DNA of 56,582 bases from an uncultured Eubacteriales bacterium. Lineage in GTDB: Bacteria > Bacillota > Clostridia > Oscillospirales > Acutalibacteraceae. The notes beneath the pieces were generated by a model, which did no database searches, was not told where the DNA came from, and saw only the letters and a program-made list of their open reading frames with translations. Shown in pieces: positions 18,083 to 39,494 of the stretch; within the stretch, counting starts at the first letter, position 1, and each line of letters opens with the position of its first letter. The stretch is taken from contig ONAX01000026.1 in NCBI GenBank assembly GCA_900315875.1, forward strand, positions 11,990-68,571. The letters run 5' to 3'. Made by a program: the position numbers and the translations under genes.

Positions 18083-20384
18083 TCAGCCGAGCTTTACAGG
18101 CTTTGAATGCCAGATTGTGTCGGCATAGTCTCTGATGGAACGGTCTGATGCGAAACGTCCTGCCTTTGCGATGTTTACAAGCGACATGCGGTTCCAGACC
18201 TTCTTGTCCTCATACAGACGGGAAGCCTTCTGCTGGGTGTTAGCATAGTCTGCAAAATCAGCAAGAACCATGTACGGGTCAATTGTTGAAAGAGATACGG
18301 CAATGTCGTTGAAGCGCTCGCCGAATTCGTTTCTGATACCGTCTACAGCAGCACGGATAATGTGGTTGTTGTTGTACGGTATGCCCGGGTTGTAGCCCTG
18401 CTTTTTAAGCTGATTAACCTCCGGTGTTGTCATACCGAAGATGAGGGCATTGTCGTCGCCGACAACGTCGTGTATCTCTACGTTAGCGCCGTCGAGGGTT
18501 CCGAGTGTAATTGCACCGTTTATCATGAACTTCATGTTTGATGTACCGGAAGCCTCTGTGCCTGCAAGTGAAATCTGTTCGCTGATTTCTGCTGCAGGAA
18601 TGAGCTTTTCAGCAACGGATACACGCGGGTGCAGCCTTTGCGCCGAAGATGTAGGTCTTGGGCTTGTAATCTGCGTCAGGGTTGTCGCGCAGCCACTGAT
18701 AGGTGCTGTATATGTGCAGAGCGTTGAGAAGCTGTCTCTTGTACTCGTGCAGTCTCTTTACCTGAACGTCGAAGATGGATTCGGGGTCAACCTTGATTCC
18801 GTTCTGCTCAAGAATGTACTTGGCCATCTTTTCCTTGTTGTGCTTCTTGATTACAGCAAGCTTTGCGAGCACTACTGCGTCGCTCTTGTAAGCCATAAGT
18901 CCCTCGAGAGCGTTTGCATCCTTTGTGAAGCGGTCGCCGATAAGCTCGGTGATAAGGGAAGCAAGCTCCGGGTTGGACTGATTGAGCCAACGTCTGTGAG
19001 CGATACCGTTTGTGACATTCTTGAATTTTTCCGGTGTTACAGCGTAGAAATCGCTGAATACGCTGTCCTTGAGGATTTCGCTGTGAAGCTTTGAAACGCC
19101 GTTTACAGAATGTGAAGCGATAACGGCAAGGTTAGCCATTCTGACGATACCGTCATTGATAACAGCCATTCTGCCGATTTTCCAGCCTTCAACGCCGAGC
19201 TTGTTCATTTCCTCGCAGAAGCGGCGGTTGATTTCCTCAACGATCTGGTAGATTCTCGGGAGTCTTCTCTGGAAGAGGTCTACCTGCCAGCACTCGAGAG
19301 CTTCGCTCATTACGGTGTGGTTGGTGTATGCGATGGTGCGTGTTACGATATCCCACGCCTTGTCCCATTCGTAGCCGCATTCGTCAAGCATAATACGCAT
19401 AAGCTCAGGGATTGCGAGAACGGGGTGGGTGTCGTTAAGGTGAATGGCAACAAGTTCCGGAAGGTTATCAAGGGAGTGGTTATGTCTGAGGTGACGCTGG
19501 ATGATATCCTGGATAGTAGCGGATACAAGGAAGTACTGCTGTGAAAGACGCAGGCTCTTACCCTCGGAATGGTTATCCTCCGGATAAAGTACTCTTGTAA
19601 TGCTCTCTGCGAGCGCCTTCTGCTCCATAGCGCGGACATAGTCGCCGGAGTTAAAGAGCTTCATATCAAAATTATCCGAGGTTGCAGCCCAGAGACGGAG
19701 TCTTGCAACACCCTTGCCGTCCGCACCGGGTACGAGCATATCATAGGGGGTAGCGATGATCTTCGTCGGGTTTTCAATCTCGATTGAATGGTGTGTTTCG
19801 TGCCAGGTTTCCTTGATTCTGCCGTCGAAGTAAACGGGAATGCTCTTCTCGGGGTGAGCCTGCAGCCATACAGAGCCGCCGGGCAGCCAGAAATCGGGAA
19901 GCTCGGTCTGCCAGCCGTCAACAAGTCGCTGGCGGAAAATACCGTATTCATAGCGCAGTGAGTAGCCCATAGCGCTGTACTTCTGTGTTGCAAGACCATC
20001 AAGGAAGCAAGCGGCAAGTCTGCCCAGACCGCCGTTTCCGAGACCTGCGTCGGGTTCCTGCTCATAGATATTTTCAAGCTTTATATCCATGCTCTTGAGA
20101 GCCTGCTCGATGGTTTCCTCGAGACCGAGATTATAAAGGTTATTTTTGAGTGAACGGCCCATGAGGAATTCCATGCAAAGGTAGTAAACTGTTTTGCTGC
20201 CCTGCTTTTCAGCAGCGGCTACGAATTCCTTATGCTCTGCACGCATGATATCGCGCAGAACGAGAGCAACTGCCTTATAATAGTGCTCATCTGTTGCGTC
20301 CTGGGGTGTAACGCCGAAATTATGTGAAAGCTTAGCAATGATAAGCTCTCTTGCCTCGCCCGGTGAAAGCTTGGACTTTGACAT
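18083..20384 (-). pseudogene. glgP: Glycogen phosphorylase, broken by out-of-frame deletion
   Basis: Two reading frames together give most of an ~800-residue glycogen phosphorylase, which releases glucose-1-phosphate from glycogen. The 5' piece (20384-18609) is intact from the start (AAGGAGG before ATG) to 'TYIFGAKAAP'; the 3' piece resumes in another frame at 'RVSVAEKLIPAAEIS' and holds the PLP lysine in SNMKFMING. In the family about 37 residues lie between these points, so ~110 bases are missing with loss of frame near 18622-18628. Without the PLP site the 5' protein cannot work. Either a true pseudogene or an assembly fault. Confidence 0.9.
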
Positions 20385-20690: not shown

Positions 20691-21425
20691 ATGAAAAGAA
20701 ACTACAGGATTGCGGACAAAACAATAGAAATAATCTCGCTGTATGATGAAGTGCACGATTACTGCAGGGACTATCTTACGGAAGATGACGCCGATTTCAG
20801 CGTTGTGATAAACCCTGACGTTATTGAGTATGAGCGAAAACGTTCGGCAAGCAATGATATAGCAGAGGGTCGCAGCGTCCGAGACTGGGATGACAGCTAC
20901 CTTGAGGAGCTTGCTGTGTACCGTAAAATAGCGGAGAAAATGCCGGAATATGATACCTTCCTTTTTCACGGCTCAGTTGTAGCTGTTGACGGCGAGGGTT
21001 ATGTGTTTACGGCGAAATCAGGCACCGGCAAATCGACGCATGCAAGACTCTGGCGTGAGCTGCTCGGCAGCCGTGCCGTCATGGTAAACGACGATAAGCC
21101 GCTGATCAGGGTGAATGAAGGCGGCGTTACAGTTTTTGGCACGCCCTATAACGGCAAGCACCGTCTCGGCAGCAATATTTCGGTTTCACTCAGGTCTGTG
21201 TGCATTATACGGCGCGCTGACGAAAACTGCATCAGCAGGATAACAAAATCTCAGGCATATGCAATGCTGCTTCAGCAAAGCTATCGCCCGTCTGATGCCG
21301 CAGCTCTTGCGAAAACGCTGCATCTTATTGATAAAATGGCGGATTCCGTAGAGCTCTGGCAGCTCGGATGCAATATGGATATCTCCGCAGCAGAGCTTGC
21401 TTACAATACAATGAAAGGAATTTGA
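20691..21425 (+). CDS. HPr-kinase-like serine kinase of peptide-maturation clusters
   Basis: A 244-residue protein with the P-loop SGTGKST at residues 110-116 after a HGSVVAVDG strand, and the VNDDKPL segment at 132-138 that matches the HPr kinase/PEPCK fold. Homologues accompany PqqD proteins in lasso-peptide clusters, where such a kinase (for example PadeK of the paeninodin cluster) phosphorylates the precursor; others are free-standing. Here it opens a five-gene cassette with PqqD two bases downstream. Substrate unknown. It lacks the N-terminal HPr-K domain, so a role on HPr itself is unlikely. Confidence 0.82.
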   Translation: MKRNYRIADKTIEIISLYDEVHDYCRDYLTEDDADFSVVINPDVIEYERKRSASNDIAEGRSVRDWDDSYLEELAVYRKIAEKMPEYDTFLFHGSVVAVDGEGYVFTAKSGTGKSTHARLWRELLGSRAVMVNDDKPLIRVNEGGVTVFGTPYNGKHRLGSNISVSLRSVCIIRRADENCISRITKSQAYAMLLQQSYRPSDAAALAKTLHLIDKMADSVELWQLGCNMDISAAELAYNTMKGI

Positions 21426-21427
21426 AT

Positions 21428-21688
21428 ATGAAGCTGAATAAGAATTTTCTTGTACACAAAACCGGCGGTGAAACCGTTGTTGTTCCAACAGGCAACGCTG
21501 ACTTTTCCGGTATTGTAAAGGGCAACAAAACACTTGGTGCAATACTTGACCTTATGAAAAATGATACAGATGAACAGCAGATAATCGACGCCATGGCTGA
21601 ACGCTTTGAGGCTCCGCGTGACGTTATTGAGAAGGATGTTGCCAATGTTATAATAAAACTTCGCAGTATTGGTGCTATCGATGAGTAA
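21428..21688 (+). CDS. PqqD family peptide-binding chaperone
   Basis: An 86-residue PqqD/RRE-type protein (winged-helix fold) that in RiPP clusters binds the leader of a precursor peptide and hands it to enzymes. The conserved layout NFLVHKTGGETVVVP...GNKTLGAILDLM...IIDAMAERF is visible. ATG 21428 has AAAGGAA upstream and starts two bases after the kinase stop. The 3' end overlaps the next gene by eight bases. Its presence argues that the cassette handles a peptide with a leader. Confidence 0.88.
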   Translation: MKLNKNFLVHKTGGETVVVPTGNADFSGIVKGNKTLGAILDLMKNDTDEQQIIDAMAERFEAPRDVIEKDVANVIIKLRSIGAIDE

Positions 21689-22115
21689 GTCCAGCTTTGA
21701 AGAGGTTATCCAGCGCGAAGGACGGCTTGTCTATGTTAATAAGGGCGACAGTATGATGCCGCTTATAAAGCAGGACCGGGATCTTCTTGTGATTGAACGC
21801 ACGAACGGCAGGCTCAGACGATTCGACGTGCCGCTTTATAAACGAGACAGCGGTCAGTATGTTTTACACAGGATCGTGAGAGTTCGGAAGAATGATTACG
21901 TTATCTGCGGTGACAATAGGGTGACTTTTGAATACGGTATTACAGATCGTCATATAATCGGTGTTCTGACTGCGGTTGTAAGAGATGGCAAAGAGCTTCC
22001 TGTCACAAGCATAAAATACAGGCTTTATGTATTTTTGTGGTATATGCTGTTTCCTGAGCGTTATCTGATTGTAAAAGCAGGCAGACTATTAAAAAGAATT
22101 GTAAAGCGAAAATAA
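21681..22115 (+). CDS. S26 (SipW/S24-like) signal peptidase-type protein
   Basis: A 144-residue protein with the nucleophile motif KGDSMMP (Ser24), the second catalytic region YVLHRIV with His63 where bacterial type I peptidases have Lys, and CGDNR at 76-80. A Ser-His arrangement is that of SipW/ER-type signal peptidases. A hydrophobic stretch near residues 120-135 may tether it to the membrane. Overlap with pqqD points to coupled translation. In this setting it may cut a leader or signal from the cassette's peptide cargo (inference). Confidence 0.78.
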   Translation: MSKSSFEEVIQREGRLVYVNKGDSMMPLIKQDRDLLVIERTNGRLRRFDVPLYKRDSGQYVLHRIVRVRKNDYVICGDNRVTFEYGITDRHIIGVLTAVVRDGKELPVTSIKYRLYVFLWYMLFPERYLIVKAGRLLKRIVKRK

Positions 22116-22260
22116 CGAATAATGACAGATTATCTGTAAACAGTCTTTTCTGCTTATAATACTGTGATTCTTGAACGCTCCGGTCATCTTCTGTATGCGG
22201 TGCAGGATGATTTATTTACATATTCGTATTTCATATTATATTTGATGAAGGAAAAGTGCT
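22116..22260. other. Gap inside the peptide cassette
   Basis: A TATAAT-like box at about 22157 may drive the ABC gene separately. A 36-codon GTG-started frame across the gap (ending in the ABC start) has no ribosome site and is not convincing as a precursor peptide. Confidence 0.35.
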
Positions 22261-23988
22261 TTGGATACTCGTAAATCAATAAATAAAAATGCAATAAAAT
22301 GGATATATAAAGTTGCCGGTACAAAAAAGGCGTATATACTTATACTGATTTTTATCCAGATGATACACGGTGCAAGCGGTGTGCTCTATGCTCTGCTTCT
22401 CCGCAATATAGTTGACAGCGCTGTCGGCAAGGATATCAACGGCTTTACTGTGAATGTTATTCTTGTAATACTTCTGGTCATTGCACAGCTTGCCATGCGT
22501 GCTGCTTTAAGATACCTGGATGAGCTTTCCAGATCCTCACTGGAAAATATCTTCAAGCAGCGGCTTATGCATAATCTTATGACGAAGAATTTTGCCGCAG
22601 TAGATGCAGTTCATTCCGGAGAATGGCTGAACAGGCTTACAAATGATACCGTTGTTGTAGCGAACGGCTGCACGGATATTATACCCGGAATTTCCGGTAT
22701 GTCGGTAAAAATGATAAGCGCAGTAATAATGATAATTATTCTGCAGCCGTGGTTTACATGGATAATCCTGCCAGGCGGTGCGGTCATGGTTGCCCTGACA
22801 TATGCATTCAGAAAGATTCTGAAAAAGCTTCATAAAAACGTACAGGAAAAGGATGGTGCGCTGCGCATCTTTCTGCAGGAAACTCTCGGAAATATGATGA
22901 TGATACGCTCCTTTGCTGCAGAGGAACAGACAGAGCATGAAATGAAAGACAAGGCCGGTGCACATAAAAGTGCGAGGATGAGGAAAAATCGCTTTTCGAA
23001 TTTCTGCAATATAGGTTTCGGCACAGCAATTCACGGAATGTATCTTTTCGGAGTTTGCTGGTGCGGATGGGGTATTCTGACAGGTGTCATAACTCTCGGA
23101 ACTCTGACAGCAGTAACACAGCTTATCTCTCAGATACAGTCGCCGTTTGCGAACATTACTGGTTATCTCCCGAGGTTTTATGCCATGACTGCAAGCGCTG
23201 AGCGACTGATGGAAATAGAGTATTTTGAAGAAGAGGAAACCGAGCCTGCATTGCCGCTTGATGAAATAAATAATCTATATAACGACAAGCTTCTGGAAAT
23301 AGGACTGAGTGATGTCTGCTTCACATATTACCCTCCGTCAGAAAAGGTAAATGAGCTTTCAAAGGACGGCATGCCGGTTGTACTGAACGGAATAAATGTT
23401 AGTGTCAGGAACGGTGAATATGTTGCCTTTACAGGACACAGCGGCTGCGGTAAATCAACTGTAATAAAGCTTCTTATGAGCATATACAGCCCGGACAGCG
23501 GAGAATGTTTTATTCGCACAAATGACGGCATCAGTCCACTTACAAACCGCTTTCACAGACTTTTTGCCTATGTTCCGCAGGGAAACAAGCTTATGACCGG
23601 AACCGTAAGGGAGGCAGTAGCCTTTGCTGATAAATCAAGAATGCACGATGACGAAAAAATAGAGCAGGCTCTTAAAGTAGCCTGTGCGTATGAATTTGTT
23701 TCAGAGCTGGAAAACGGAGCGGATACGCTTCTCGGCGAAAGGGGAACAGGTCTTTCCGAGGGTCAGATGCAGCGCATTGCCGTTGCAAGGGCAGTTTTTT
23801 CAGAAAGTCCGGTGCTGATTCTGGATGAAGCCACAAGCTCTCTTGACACTGCAACTGAGCAGCGCCTGCTGCAGAATCTTCGCAGTATGACTGACAAAAC
23901 CGTAATAATAGTCACTCACAGACCTGCAGCTCTTGAAATATGTGACAGGGTGATGAAATTCACGGAGAAGGGGGTAGAGGAAATATGA
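22261..23988 (+). CDS. ABC transporter with fused membrane and ATPase domains
   Basis: A 575-residue half-transporter. Residues ~20-310 hold about six hydrophobic helices of the exporter (type IV) fold; the ATPase has Walker A GHSGCGKST at 392-400, the signature LSEGQMQR near 498, Walker B VLILDEA near 517 and the switch His in VTHRP near 552. It lacks an N-terminal C39 peptidase domain, so it does not cut leaders itself. Start TTG 22261 has GAAGGAAAAG upstream. It overlaps the nucleotidyltransferase gene by four bases. Likely exports the cassette's product as a homodimer. Confidence 0.9.
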   Translation: MDTRKSINKNAIKWIYKVAGTKKAYILILIFIQMIHGASGVLYALLLRNIVDSAVGKDINGFTVNVILVILLVIAQLAMRAALRYLDELSRSSLENIFKQRLMHNLMTKNFAAVDAVHSGEWLNRLTNDTVVVANGCTDIIPGISGMSVKMISAVIMIIILQPWFTWIILPGGAVMVALTYAFRKILKKLHKNVQEKDGALRIFLQETLGNMMMIRSFAAEEQTEHEMKDKAGAHKSARMRKNRFSNFCNIGFGTAIHGMYLFGVCWCGWGILTGVITLGTLTAVTQLISQIQSPFANITGYLPRFYAMTASAERLMEIEYFEEEETEPALPLDEINNLYNDKLLEIGLSDVCFTYYPPSEKVNELSKDGMPVVLNGINVSVRNGEYVAFTGHSGCGKSTVIKLLMSIYSPDSGECFIRTNDGISPLTNRFHRLFAYVPQGNKLMTGTVREAVAFADKSRMHDDEKIEQALKVACAYEFVSELENGADTLLGERGTGLSEGQMQRIAVARAVFSESPVLILDEATSSLDTATEQRLLQNLRSMTDKTVIIVTHRPAALEICDRVMKFTEKGVEEI

Positions 23989-25106
23989 ATGTTGAAGAGT
24001 ATGAAAAGGCGATAAATGATGTAATATGGCTTGCAGGCTGCGTAATGAATGAAACAATTCCAGACCGTGACCGACTTGATAGAACAGATCTTTCACTCTT
24101 ATACAACGCAGCAAATAAGCATATGCTGACTGCTATAGTCGGATATGCGCTGGAAAAGGCAGGAATTTATGACGAACGTTTTGTTCAGGCAAAGGCTAAA
24201 TCCATTCGCAAGATAACGGTGATGGAAATTGATAAGCAGCGCCTTTTTGAAAGGTTTGAAGAGGAAAAGATCCGGTATATGCCGCTGAAAGGTGCAGTAA
24301 TAAAGGATTATTACCCGTCCGTCGGTCTGCGTCAGCTGTCTGATTATGACATATGGTTCGACAGAGCGTACGCAGAAAAAGTACGTGAAATTATGACGGA
24401 GCTTGGTTTTACATGCGAGCATTTCGGGGAAAATAATCATGATGTATATTTCAAACAACCCGTCAGCAATTTTGAAATGCATACCTTTCTGTTTAACGAG
24501 ATGCACAAAACGGAATTATTTAAATATTACGAAAATATTGATAGCAAACTGATAAAGGATGAGGGTAACGCCTACGGTTATCATTTCAGCAATGAAGATT
24601 TGTATATATATCTGACTGCACATGAATACAAGCATTTTTCCAGAAGAGGAACCGGACTCCGGTCTGTACTGGATACTTATCTTTTTCTTAAGAGATTTGG
24701 CAGTCAGCTGGATATGGAGTATGTCAAAGCTGAAGCAGCAAAGCTGGATATTGCGGAATTTGAAAGGAAAAGCCGCTCACTTGCCATGGACCTTTTTGTG
24801 GGCAACGATCTGAGTGAGGAAAACAAGGAAATGCTCAGATATATTGTTTTTTCCGGTACGTATGGCACCTTGCAAAACAAGCTTGAAAACCATGTGCTTG
24901 AATATGGTGGCGGAAGTGGCGGAAAAAGAAGGTTTTTGCTTAGAAGGCTATTTCCTACTATGAAAGAGATAAAGAAATACTATCCAAGCTTTTACAAATA
25001 TAAGATTCTCATTCCTTTTCTTCCATTTTACAAAAGCGTCGAGGCGATGACTGTAAAACGAAAACAGACAAAGGAAAAGCTGAAGATTCTGAAAAATATT
25101 AAATAA
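23985..25106 (+). CDS. PF14907-type nucleotidyltransferase of peptide clusters
   Basis: A 373-residue protein with the family core LKGAVIKDYYP near residues 99-110 and LSDYDIWF near 119, in which the paired Asp residues bind metal, then a variable helical C-terminus. Members (such as PadeN in paeninodin-like clusters) recur with PqqD, HPr-like kinase and an ABC exporter; their substrate is mostly unknown, possibly transferring a nucleotide or sugar-nucleotide group to the peptide. It is the last gene of the cassette and is followed directly by a terminator. Confidence 0.82.
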   Translation: MNVEEYEKAINDVIWLAGCVMNETIPDRDRLDRTDLSLLYNAANKHMLTAIVGYALEKAGIYDERFVQAKAKSIRKITVMEIDKQRLFERFEEEKIRYMPLKGAVIKDYYPSVGLRQLSDYDIWFDRAYAEKVREIMTELGFTCEHFGENNHDVYFKQPVSNFEMHTFLFNEMHKTELFKYYENIDSKLIKDEGNAYGYHFSNEDLYIYLTAHEYKHFSRRGTGLRSVLDTYLFLKRFGSQLDMEYVKAEAAKLDIAEFERKSRSLAMDLFVGNDLSEENKEMLRYIVFSGTYGTLQNKLENHVLEYGGGSGGKRRFLLRRLFPTMKEIKKYYPSFYKYKILIPFLPFYKSVEAMTVKRKQTKEKLKILKNIK

Positions 25107-25277: not shown

Positions 25278-27338
25278 TTATTCCTCCTGCAGGCTTTCTG
25301 CAAGCATTTTTGCGCACTTTGAAGCTTCGCTGTTGTGCGACTGATCCTCGGAATCGTCAACATATCCGAAAACAACGGTTTCGCCGTTGTAATGAAGCTG
25401 CGTGTAGTAATATACAAAATACATCGGACGGGTCTTGATTTTTCCGTCGGAAAGATCCTTATAATGTGCTGTGAAAATACCCTCAACTCTTGTCATTCTG
25501 TATCCGTTTATACTGACTGAATCGTCGTCGGTAATTCGGACAAATTCATCCTTGAAATATTCGTGATCCTTCAGATAATCGTCGGCATATACGGTGTCCT
25601 TGTATTCCGGGTCTGATGATTTATAGAAATTCATCACGCTAAGTGAGTCGCGCAGAAATACATATCTTCTCGGGTCGTCGACAAGCTCTGATTCGTATAT
25701 AGAAGGATCGTTTGTATACACGCAGTCTATCAGATGCGGACCCTGCAGACCCATTGACCGTACGCCGTAATTTATACTGTTGTTTCTTTCAGGCAGCTCG
25801 AATGACACTATAGATTCATTGTCAATCTGCGGATTTATTGATACAAGCTCAAGCTTGTACGTACCGTTGTCATTTTTTATCGGTGAATATGTGTAATCCG
25901 CGGTCGTTTCGCGGAAGGTGCGTGCCATTCTGTCATCATTCAGCTGAGCTGCAGCGTAGTTTTCAGGTTTGCCGGAGGTATTCATGCAAAGCCAGTATAC
26001 GGTTGCATTATTCTCTTTCAGCGTAGTAGCATATGCACAGAACTGACGGTAGTAGTATTTATCCGGATCAGCATACTGTGCTGTCGGCACCTCGCTGCAT
26101 TCATATCTGATCATATCGTAGCCGTTTATTGTAACGGTCTGCGCTGAATCTATTTTCCAGTCGTATTGTCCCAGCCAGTTGCTCAGAGTACTTTTAAGCA
26201 CGCTGAAATTGCCCGGGAATTTTTCGGTGGAGTAGCTGATTTCGTCAGGTGCAGCGTTTTCAAGGTTTATTCCGCCGTGCATAACGAGCGTTCCGTCGCC
26301 CTGATAGGCATAGGCGAGCGAAGATTCGGTAAAGGTGCGTATGCGGGGTACGTTGACTGCATAATACGCATAGGAAGAATTATAATAAACGGAATTAACA
26401 TCCGCAACCCCCCAGTTGTTATAATTGATATCCTCAAGCGCAATGCTGTCATCGGTATTCAGAAAGTAGGTGTTTGCAATATAAATACCGCCGATCGTAC
26501 ATCCTATCGCAACCGCAGCGCATATCGCCCCGATACCTATTTTCGCTGATAATGTCAGATCACCTGCCTCTCCTGCCGCAGTCACAGCCGACGCGGCATT
26601 TATTGCGGTTGCTCCTGCCGCAGCCGAAGCTGTAGCAGAGAACAGTGAATCAGCCGGAATAACATTTATTTCTGCTCTTTGTGCCTGATAAAGCAGATAC
26701 AGAAACGGCAGAACTGTAAGGCACCTGAGACGGAAGCCGTTGTTTTCAAGCTTTTCGACTTCCTTTTTCATAAACTGTCTTGCATAGCGCAGTCTGCTTT
26801 TAATGGTATTTTCGCTGCAGCCGTACATCTCTGCGATTTCACGTGTGCTCATGCTTTCGTAATAGAACAGGAAAAGCGACTGCCGCTGCTCCTCGGGCAG
26901 ACGGGAGATTATTTCCTCGAGGGTATCCCTGATATCGGAATCAATGGTTGTTTCCTCAGGATCAGGCTCGGAATTCTGCTCATCTGACAGACGTATTATC
27001 TCATCGTCAGTTTCAAGAACAAGTCGCTTGCTCTTTTTCAGATAATTGATGGACAGGTTCGCAGCAATGCGTCTGATCCATGCTTCAAAGCTGAGCGGAT
27101 CCGAAAGCTTATCCAGAGAAGAATATGCCTTGAAAAATGTATCCTGTGTAATATCCTCGGCGTTTTCCTTTGAATCGAGGATATTATAGCTTACGTAGTA
27201 TGCGTCGCTGTAATAAGCTTTGTACAGGATATCAAAATCCTCTTTGCTTCCGTGCTTTGCCGCTTCAATAAGCTTCGGGAGATATTTTCGTCTTGTATCG
27301 GGAAGTGTGATAAATGAGTTTATTTCCTTTTCTGTCAT
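25278..27338 (-). CDS. ECF-like sigma factor fused to a membrane helix and a large outer domain
   Basis: A 686-residue protein. Region sigma2 (about 25-100: DAYYVSYNILDSKENAEDITQDTFFKA, SFEAWIRRIAANLSINYLKK) and sigma4 (about 135-190: LPEEQRQSLFLFYYESMSTREIAEMYGCSENTIKSRLRYAR) are complete. A hydrophobic patch near 205-220, an Ala-rich linker, and a clear membrane helix at about 263-290 (IGAICAAVAIGCTIGGIYI) follow, then ~390 residues that would be outside the cell and match nothing I know. ATG 27338 has GAGGG upstream. No separate anti-sigma gene follows, so the outer part may hold or release the sigma domain (inference). Confidence 0.85.
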   Translation of the reverse strand: MTEKEINSFITLPDTRRKYLPKLIEAAKHGSKEDFDILYKAYYSDAYYVSYNILDSKENAEDITQDTFFKAYSSLDKLSDPLSFEAWIRRIAANLSINYLKKSKRLVLETDDEIIRLSDEQNSEPDPEETTIDSDIRDTLEEIISRLPEEQRQSLFLFYYESMSTREIAEMYGCSENTIKSRLRYARQFMKKEVEKLENNGFRLRCLTVLPFLYLLYQAQRAEINVIPADSLFSATASAAAGATAINAASAVTAAGEAGDLTLSAKIGIGAICAAVAIGCTIGGIYIANTYFLNTDDSIALEDINYNNWGVADVNSVYYNSSYAYYAVNVPRIRTFTESSLAYAYQGDGTLVMHGGINLENAAPDEISYSTEKFPGNFSVLKSTLSNWLGQYDWKIDSAQTVTINGYDMIRYECSEVPTAQYADPDKYYYRQFCAYATTLKENNATVYWLCMNTSGKPENYAAAQLNDDRMARTFRETTADYTYSPIKNDNGTYKLELVSINPQIDNESIVSFELPERNNSINYGVRSMGLQGPHLIDCVYTNDPSIYESELVDDPRRYVFLRDSLSVMNFYKSSDPEYKDTVYADDYLKDHEYFKDEFVRITDDDSVSINGYRMTRVEGIFTAHYKDLSDGKIKTRPMYFVYYYTQLHYNGETVVFGYVDDSEDQSHNSEASKCAKMLAESLQEE

Positions 27339-27448
27339 ATAAATCCCTCGCTTTTTCCTTTCATATATGTAGACAATCATTTCGCAGAAATAGTTTTATG
27401 ATTTTGAAAAAAATTTTAAATTTTTTATGTTATTTTACAAATATAAAG

Positions 27449-38900: not shown

Positions 38901-39494
38901 TTATTTACCGGTTCTGCCGCTGTTCATAAGCTCAGGATAGGGAATAACTCTTCCCGGTGTTTCAATATGCGAACCCAGGACCTTTTCAAGCCAGACAATG
39001 CTGTACCATCTGCCGAATTTGAATCCGGAGCGCGGAAACTCTCCCACCGGTACAAAGCCTGTGTGCCGGTGGAAATCAAGGCTGTTTCTCGTCAGGTATT
39101 CGTCGTCCTTTTCAGGACAGGCTACGCAGGCATAGGCATTTATTATGCCCATTTCGGATAGTATCCTTTCAAGCTCGGAGTAGAGCATCCGTCCGCCGCC
39201 GGTTCTGCGGCAGCCGCGCTCAAGATATACCGTAAGCTCTGCGCACCATGCGAATGCTGCTCTGGGGTGAAATGCTCCGGCGTAGGCATAGCCGATTATC
39301 CTGCCATCCTGCTCCAGCACCAGATAGGGGTATTTTTTCAGCGTGTTTTCAATCCTGCTTTCAAACTCCTCCGGTGTCGGCACGTCGTATTCAAAGGTCA
39401 CCGCGGTATTTTCAATATAGTAGCTGTATATTTCAAGCAGCTTTTTCGCGTCCTGAGTGCATGCAGGACGTATTGTCATTGATGATGCCGTCAT
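38901..39494 (-). CDS. GNAT N-acetyltransferase (phosphinothricin-type)
   Basis: A 197-residue GNAT enzyme resembling phosphinothricin/methionine-sulfoximine acetyltransferases: MTIRPACTQDAKKLLEIYSYYIENTAVTFEYDVPTPEEF at the start, acetyl-CoA-binding ERGCRRTGGGRMLYSEL (R-x-x-G-x-G variant), then HRHTGFVPVGEFPRSGFKFGRW. ATG overlaps the galK stop (ATGA). The acceptor amine is unknown. Last gene of the long leftward run. Confidence 0.88.
   Translation of the reverse strand: MTASSMTIRPACTQDAKKLLEIYSYYIENTAVTFEYDVPTPEEFESRIENTLKKYPYLVLEQDGRIIGYAYAGAFHPRAAFAWCAELTVYLERGCRRTGGGRMLYSELERILSEMGIINAYACVACPEKDDEYLTRNSLDFHRHTGFVPVGEFPRSGFKFGRWYSIVWLEKVLGSHIETPGRVIPYPELMNSGRTGK

What the first reader, a model, noticed from the sequence alone, without database searches (positions are those of the whole stretch)
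20691..25106. Lasso-like tailoring and export cassette without cyclase or precursor
Five tightly spaced genes encode an HPr-kinase-like enzyme, a PqqD leader-binding protein, a Ser-His S26 peptidase, an ABC exporter and a PF14907 nucleotidyltransferase. In paeninodin-type clusters the kinase, PqqD, exporter and nucleotidyltransferase co-occur with a cyclase and a leader protease; here the cyclase, B2 protease and any clear precursor are missing, and an S26 peptidase takes a place not usual in lasso clusters. This could be a distinct peptide or surface-tag modification system.
Basis: partly seen in the sequence, partly recalled or inferred. Interest (0 to 1): 0.8.

Follow-up and report, generated by a model that had tools for sequence, protein, structure and literature searches.

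The report
LPP-like peptide cassette with distant precursor
Five neighbouring genes in a bacterium apparently related to Ruminococcus look like a maturation and export line for a small peptide, much like one described in 2026 from other bacteria, except that the likely peptide gene lies elsewhere in the genome, right behind the gene of a large secreted surface protein.

Summary
The five genes are real, intact and operon-like at 20691-25106: HprK-like kinase, PqqD/RRE, S26-type Ser-His peptidase, MsbA-like exporter, PF14907 nucleotidyltransferase. They match in content and order the core of LPP (linear polyphosphorylated peptide) clusters described in Bacilli in May 2026 (PMC13381572). No B2 protease or lasso-type cyclase was found in the genome. 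The 'missing' precursor exists: an undescribed family (Yxx[P/A]E[M/L/I]xVIxF[E/D]xEDVITTS, then a short acidic core) lies beside many homologous cassettes. The window's genome has one copy, on another contig, 39 nt behind a 1087-aa secreted DUF285 protein. Of 78 genomes with a precursor (394 searched), 73 also carry the kinase or the peptidase. Of 93 precursor hits, 58 lie within 60 nt downstream of a same-strand gene, often a large secreted protein. So it works like LPP, but the published leader consensus is not met and precursors are dispersed. I file it as a clostridial variant. Phosphorylation, cleavage site and any link to surface proteins are inferred, not shown.

The parts
20691..21425 (+). 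K: HprK-like peptide kinase (LppK-like), 244 aa
   Evidence: Weak Hpr_kinase_C/HprK hits, below cut-off. His93, Lys114 (P-loop) and Asp135 invariant in 7 of 7 aligned relatives; the window also has Asp134. Compare the His-Lys-Asp-Asp motif of lasso peptide kinases (passage).
21428..21688 (+). D: discrete PqqD-like RiPP recognition element (LppB-like), 86 aa
   Evidence: PF05402 E 2.7e-11. Asn33 (33 of 33) and Asp70 (at least 90%) align with LppB N33 and D70, which contact the leader (the residue match uses a numbering offset that I inferred).
21681..22115 (+). S: S24/S26-clan Ser-His peptidase, probable leader peptidase (LppS-like), 144 aa, no long N-terminal helix in the model
   Evidence: Ser24, His63, Asp78, Asp89 identical in 80 of 80 sequences; model pLDDT 86.8, nearest folds UmuD', LexA, SipA and signal peptidases, none with E at or below 0.001.
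22261..23988 (+). A: MsbA-like ABC exporter without listed peptidase domain (LppD-like), 575 aa, TTG start assumed
   Evidence: ABC_membrane E 2.6e-32, ABC_tran E 1.8e-26, no C39 domain listed.
23985..25106 (+). N: PF14907 nucleotidyltransferase (LppN/PsmN-like), 373 aa
   Evidence: PF14907 E 6.1e-43.

Best explanation
The cassette is a RiPP maturation and export line of the LPP type acting in trans. The substrate is a small precursor encoded elsewhere (own genome: contig C26, 27733-27852, minus strand, 39 aa). Inferred steps: the leader's Tyr-x-x-[Pro/Ala/Cys]-x-[Leu/Met/Ile] motif binds the PqqD-like RRE (D); the kinase (K) phosphorylates, perhaps repeatedly, the conserved Ser that ends the ITTS motif; the nucleotidyltransferase (N) caps or glycosylates that phosphate; the Ser-His peptidase (S) removes the leader near VITT/S; the ABC exporter (A) sends out a short acidic linear core. 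Shown here: the gene set, its order and conservation, no cyclase or B2 found, the precursor family, its co-occurrence with the cassette, and its frequent position behind secreted-protein genes. Not shown: any enzymatic step or the product.
For: Same five genes in the same order as the lpp operon A-K-B-S-D-N, in the window and in 23 of 47 flank-complete loci (all five present). S has Ser and His 39 residues apart, as LppS S29/H68. Precursor family with a leader of the RRE-binding type and variable cores; Ser at the end of the motif in 84 of 86 parsed precursors, and by eye in the other 7. P within 4 kb of S in 23 of 51 loci with at least 4 kb upstream. Own-genome copy E 9.8e-13. P in 78 of 394 genomes, 73 of them with K or S. 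For Bacilli the paper reports that LppK phosphorylates core Ser3 and that LppS cuts the leader with LppB's help.
Against: The leader differs from the LPP consensus (Pro-to-Phe spacing 6, not 9). D scores higher against lasso RREs (TbiB1 30.7, TfuB1 26.7, PbaB1 24.8 bits) than against LppB (20.5). The own-genome precursor has Cys where most leaders have Pro or Ala. P was not found within 4 kb of S in 28 of 51 loci, and only 23 of 47 flank-complete loci hold all five genes (3 hold S alone). 5 of 78 precursor genomes have neither K nor S at the thresholds used. No activity data; LppN had no visible effect even in the published system.
Confidence: 0.8

Rival explanations
1. A decayed lasso peptide cluster that has lost its cyclase, B2 protease and precursor.
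For: Kinase, PqqD, exporter and PF14907-type genes occur in paeninodin-like clusters.
Against: All five frames are open, catalytic residues are conserved, the set recurs in 23 of 47 flank-complete loci of relatives, and the co-occurring precursors carry Tyr, not the paeninodin WxxP, in the leader.
Confidence: 0.04
2. The cassette mainly serves the secreted surface proteins (or a lipoprotein), with P as a carrier, targeting or anchoring piece rather than a free end product.
For: 65 of 93 P hits have a same-strand gene within 150 nt upstream; 42 of those 65 look secreted versus 254 of 1359 background genes. In L164 the P motif is fused in frame to the C-terminus of a 345-aa secreted-looking protein. 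In 10 of 80 S-anchored loci a Ser/Thr/Asp/Glu-rich, mostly lipoprotein-like gene with an ELPF[V/I]P-like tail ends next to K or D.
Against: P has its own leader and conserved Ser like LPP precursors; the P leader profile matches 0 of 65 upstream proteins at E 1e-3; no enzyme that would couple peptide to protein was identified, though none was searched for.
Confidence: 0.12
3. The product is a secreted signalling or antimicrobial peptide.
For: Short cores presumably exported; patchy distribution (P in 78 of 394 genomes); an ABC-ATPase-like neighbour in 12 of 80 loci, 5 of its members within 6 kb of S, could be an immunity pump and was not examined.
Against: Cores are acidic (median net charge -3, 86 parsed of 93) and often sited behind surface-protein genes. 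Sensor or immunity genes were not specifically searched.
Confidence: 0.15

Closest known systems
LPP (linear polyphosphorylated peptide) clusters, Popov et al. 2026, PMC13381572 (abstract, passages and sections 6, 7, 8, 9, 11, 12, 16 read; supplements not seen)
   Same: Core genes and order K-B-S-D-N, no cyclase, SipW-like Ser-His peptidase as leader peptidase, discrete RRE, precursors with conserved leader and variable C-terminus, Tyr-based RRE motif, Ser near the start of the core.
   Different: Leader consensus and spacing; host group (experiments and genome mapping in Bacilli; 'clostridia' and 'ruminococcus' have 0 hits in the main text, although its Bacillota data set may include Clostridia); precursor in trans and often behind secreted-protein genes, whereas published LPPs often co-localise with capsule loci.
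Paeninodin/pseudomycoidin-type phosphorylated lasso peptides (passages of PMC9266682; PMC7533575)
   Same: HprK-like kinase, PqqD-like B1, exporter, PsmN nucleotidyltransferase.
   Different: No cyclase or B2 protease found, no WxxP leader; linear product expected; S26-type peptidase in place of B2.

Membership tests
LPP | Core genes kinase, RRE, SpI-like peptidase, MsbA-like exporter, NTP transferase | tested here: met
   kinase and peptidase by weak family hits plus conserved residues.
LPP | Operon order A-K-B-S-D-N | tested here: met
   K-D-S-A-N in the window (precursor A absent from the operon); exactly P-K-D-S-A-N in 9 of 47 flank-complete loci, K-D-S-A-N without P in 8.
LPP | Leader peptidase with Ser-His-Asp triad (LppS S29, H68, D93) | tested here: met
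   S24, H63, D78 and D89 identical in 80 of 80. That D89 equals D93 is inferred from spacing; the LppS sequence was not at hand.
LPP | Precursor leader YxxPxVLxHQxIxFETxxS (Px9Fx[T/A]) | tested here: not met
   Here Yxx[P/A]E[M/L/I]x[V/I][I/V]xF[E/D]x[E/D]D[V/I]ITTS, Pro-to-Phe spacing 6 (published motif).
LPP | Precursor gene inside or within about 5 kb of the cluster | tested here: not met
   Window: none; own-genome copy on contig C26. Relatives: within 4 kb of S in 23 of 51 loci with at least 4 kb upstream.
LPP | RRE groups with LppB | tested here: inconclusive
   N33 and D70 shared with LppB, but profile scores favour other lasso RREs: 30.7, 26.7, 24.8 versus 20.5 bits. No tree made.
LPP | Kinase-dependent phosphorylation of a core Ser | not testable with these tools
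   Ser in 34 of 34 aligned precursors and 84 of 86 parsed of 93; no assay.
Lasso peptide cluster | Macrolactam synthetase (cyclase) | tested here: not met
   PF00733: two MCG-starting AsnB-like proteins, QueC-like, GuaA-like (named by eye), none on the window's contig.
Lasso peptide cluster | B2 transglutaminase-like protease | tested here: not met
   PF13471: no hit in the own genome.
HprK_rel_A / HprK_rel_B / ScmC systems (NCBIfam) | Kinase over the curated cut-off of TIGR04352, TIGR04355 or TIGR04249 | tested here: not met
   16.3, 19.1 and 18.8 bits against cut-offs 200, 200 and 125.

The most novel reading that the evidence does not exclude
One central K-D-S-A-N cassette serves several dispersed precursors, each made as the last cistron behind a large secreted protein, so that every such surface protein is supplied with its own exported phospho-peptide partner (ligand, anchor or maturation factor): a RiPP system used for surface-protein assembly rather than as a free natural product.
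Probability: 0.3. Interest if true: 0.85.

Novelty: new variant of a known kind. Interest (0 to 1): 0.6.

Why it matters
LPPs were described in 2026 and their biological role is unknown. A clostridial branch seen in many Ruminococcus-type genomes (467 of 546 pattern matches in a species-level collection encode a relative of S) widens the class. Precursors placed behind identifiable secreted proteins (BspA-type LRR, subtilase, cohesin-bearing, DUF285) give a concrete, testable hint of what such peptides may be for. It also shows that a cluster scored as lacking a precursor may simply have it elsewhere in the genome.

Tried and rejected
Lasso cluster remnant: disfavoured. Single-sequence search of D against solved structures found nothing useful; the profile search worked. 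Profile search of S against solved structures gave only weak hits, and that of K weak HprK and PEP carboxykinase P-loop hits. Fold search of the C-terminal module of the surface proteins gave no match with E at or below 0.001. The ELPF[VI]P tail was sought in the own genome: one DNA match, in no ORF of at least 40 aa. P matches no convincing Pfam or NCBIfam model (three single-member Pfam hits at E 0.046-0.07). Promoter and terminator scans were below the shuffle means (9 against 10.0 and 3 against 4.0), so no regulatory claim is made. Paper searches showed no description of this leader family or of precursors behind secreted proteins; the library holds CC-licensed PMC papers only.

Mends made on re-checking: a first count of flank-complete loci (32 and 26 loci) was wrong because a name-format slip dropped L068-L099; one search replaces it; one search's co-occurrence and signal-peptide counts are not affected. 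The Ser count (80 of 86) included mis-parsed rows; one search replaces it (84 of 86). I did not change any odds for this.

Limits: the signal-peptide test is a home-made hydrophobicity rule (an earlier version on 29 dispersed cases gave 21 of 29 against 53 of 205). The C-terminal-module profile was seeded with 12 of the 65 upstream proteins, the own-genome one among them, so 23 of 65 against 9 of 1359 is partly circular; without seeds it is 11 of 53, and some of those 11 are near-copies of seeds or doubtful. Loci are not independent: some contigs appear under two names, genomes are related, and S-anchored loci are the best 80 of 467. The K place list was cut, so 79 linked genomes is a lower bound. 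Dispersed P loci (L151-L190) were picked from the top of the score list, mostly leaving out those beside K (L190 was included), not at random. For the module model three of 22 non-own proteins were left out by eye and one near-duplicate dropped. QueC-like, GuaA-like and glycogen phosphorylase are names given from recall.
Full report
What is there. The window holds five intact same-strand genes at 20691-25106 with short or overlapping junctions apart from one 145-nt gap. Family searches support PqqD, ABC exporter and PF14907 over cut-off; the kinase and the peptidase are below cut-off and rest on residues: H93, K114 and D135 invariant in 7 of 7 aligned kinases, S24, H63, D78 and D89 identical in 80 of 80 peptidases. 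A model of the peptidase (pLDDT 86.8) resembles UmuD', LexA, SipA and signal peptidases (best E 2.8e-3, none at or below 0.001) and lacks a long N-terminal helix, unlike ordinary membrane-anchored signal peptidase I (that comparison is recalled). The exporter lists no C39 domain, so a separate leader peptidase is expected; S is the natural candidate.

Is it a lasso cluster. No. PF13471 (B2) gives no hit in the genome. PF00733 gives two asparagine-synthase-like proteins with MCG N-termini and two proteins that look QueC-like and GuaA-like, none on the window's contig. Only one PqqD is found in the genome, the one in the cassette.

Conservation. A profile of S found 546 pattern matches in one-genome-per-species contigs, 467 encoding a relative, the best 80 kept; by their titles most are Ruminococcus, Oscillospiraceae or other Clostridia, some Lachnospiraceae, a few odd labels (Alistipes, Bacilli). 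Of these 80 loci 79 had an S call and 47 had at least 3.2 kb upstream and 4.6 kb downstream of S: K in 38, D in 43, A in 30, N in 33, all five in 23, S alone in 3. Orders include P-K-D-S-A-N (9), K-D-S-A-N (8) and D-N-K-S-A (2). In 394 genomes of the order, K is in 126, S in 122, both in 113, within 4 kb on one contig in at least 79.

The precursor. Clustering neighbours exposed a small gene upstream of the cassettes. A profile built from 35 of these peptides finds a clear family, here called P, in the fetched loci. The consensus is Y-x-x-P/A-E-M/L/I-x-V/I-I/V-x-F-E/D-x-E/D-D-V/I-I-T-T-S, then a variable core (median 16 aa, median net charge -3 over 86 parsed of 93). The closing Ser is invariant in 34 of 34 aligned and present in 84 of 86 parsed, plus the 7 unparsed by eye. 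P is within 4 kb of S in 23 of 51 loci that have at least 4 kb upstream, not in the other 28. P has no convincing Pfam or NCBIfam match, and its motif was found in no paper held. The window has no P. The own genome has one match, on contig C26 (E 9.8e-13): MKKQYSKCELEIIEFETDDVITTSGDETDLIDPRKDSTI. P is in 78 of 394 genomes: 67 have K, 73 have K or S, 5 have neither (Fisher p below 1e-28 in both tests, genomes not independent).

Dispersed precursors behind secreted proteins. Over 93 P hits in 82 loci, 77 have a same-strand gene of at least 150 aa within 400 nt upstream, 65 within 150 nt and 58 within 60 nt. Of the 65 upstream proteins 42 pass a simple signal-peptide rule, against 254 of 1359 other genes in the loci; split: 13 of 26 in cassette-anchored loci, 27 of 36 in dispersed loci. 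Median length is 839 against 329 aa. Of 28 such upstream proteins scanned (dispersed loci only), 5 match BspA-type LRR_5, 3 subtilase, 3 cohesin, 1 DUF285; a few look cytoplasmic, e.g. a short-chain dehydrogenase. Some share a C-terminal module (beta domain plus helix pair by model, pLDDT 87.5): 23 of 65 against 9 of 1359, partly circular because 12 of the 65 were seeds. The own-genome P follows, by 39 nt, a 1087-aa DUF285 protein (PF03382 E 4.1e-61) whose C-terminus was one of those seeds. The module has no close fold in the PDB. In one locus (L164) the P motif is fused in frame to the C-terminus of a 345-aa secreted-looking protein; otherwise the P profile matches none of the 65 upstream proteins at E 1e-3.

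What it works like. Popov et al. 2026 (PMC13381572; sections 6-9, 11, 12, 16 read; supplements not seen) describe LPP clusters with precursor, kinase LppK, RRE LppB, SpI-like peptidase LppS, exporter LppD and NTP transferase LppN. They show in B. subtilis that LppK phosphorylates core Ser3 and LppS removes the leader, and in vitro that cleavage needs LppB; LppN had no visible effect. The window's cassette has the same genes in the same order. D keeps N33 and D70, which in LppB contact the leader backbone near Pro and the leader Tyr (residue match inferred from a numbering offset). Per passages of PMC9266682, kinases of phosphorylated lasso peptides carry His-Lys-Asp-Asp, and PsmN is responsible for hexoses on phospho-Ser.

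Is it an LPP. The published leader consensus is not met (Pro-to-Phe spacing 9 there, 6 here), the precursor is not in the cluster, and D scores lower to LppB than to three lasso RREs. So 'works like LPP' is strong; 'is an LPP' is not claimed. I call it a clostridial variant.

Mechanism with status. Shown: gene set, order, conservation, precursor family, co-occurrence, placement. Inferred: D binds the P leader; K phosphorylates the Ser of ITTS; N decorates the phosphate; S cuts near VITT/S; A exports. The role of the product is open. The boldest reading not excluded is that each mature peptide is a partner of the secreted protein encoded just before it.

Noticed in passing
L075 279-776; L083 7485-7880; L091 3585-4013; L099 8487-9002; L116 7173-7559 and 7486-8034; L126 8384-8866; L130 3423-4064; L131 2745-3386; L134 9206-9721; L136 8369-9010: Ser/Thr/Asp/Glu-rich genes (8 of 11 with a lipobox by a crude pattern) whose C-terminus resembles ELPF[V/I]P end within 500 nt of K or D: 11 of 14 tail-pattern hits, from 7768 ORFs of at least 60 aa with the tail test applied to those up to 330 aa. 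Nine of 93 precursors have a similar core end, e.g. L190 P ends IELPIIPVK.
   Followed up: partly
L164 (G189:C23 near 39392-39478): Natural-looking in-frame fusion: P motif at the C-terminus of a 345-aa secreted-looking protein. Assembly error not excluded.
   Followed up: partly
L076, L079, L088, L095, L096, L098, L111, L121, L127 upstream of S: A Radical_SAM-type protein of roughly 450-490 aa (PF04055 in the L098 member) precedes the cassette in 9 loci; possible extra tailoring.
   Followed up: no
L080, L085, L089, L098, L104 just after S: A methyltransferase-like protein (Methyltransf_25 in the L098 member) follows S in 5 loci.
   Followed up: no
L068, L074, L086, L099, L102, L107, L109, L110, L114, L133, L136, L140: An ABC-ATPase-like protein occurs in 12 loci, 5 members within 6 kb of S; not examined.
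   Followed up: no
L046 8511-10556; L048 2369-4468; L049 7694-9755: Same-genus mini-cassettes P-K-N, K-D-N and P-K-N without S or A calls in the fetched stretch.
   Followed up: no
window 25278-27380 (-): ECF-type sigma factor (regions 2 and 4) fused to a long C-terminal part, 700 aa, converging on the cassette.
   Followed up: no
window 18083-20384 (-): A glycogen-phosphorylase-like gene (name recalled, not searched) appears split into a 591-aa and a 150-aa ORF; frameshift or assembly error not checked.
   Followed up: no
G290, G116: Some genomes carry many dispersed precursors (8 and 7 matches); G290 has neither K nor S at the thresholds used.
   Followed up: partly
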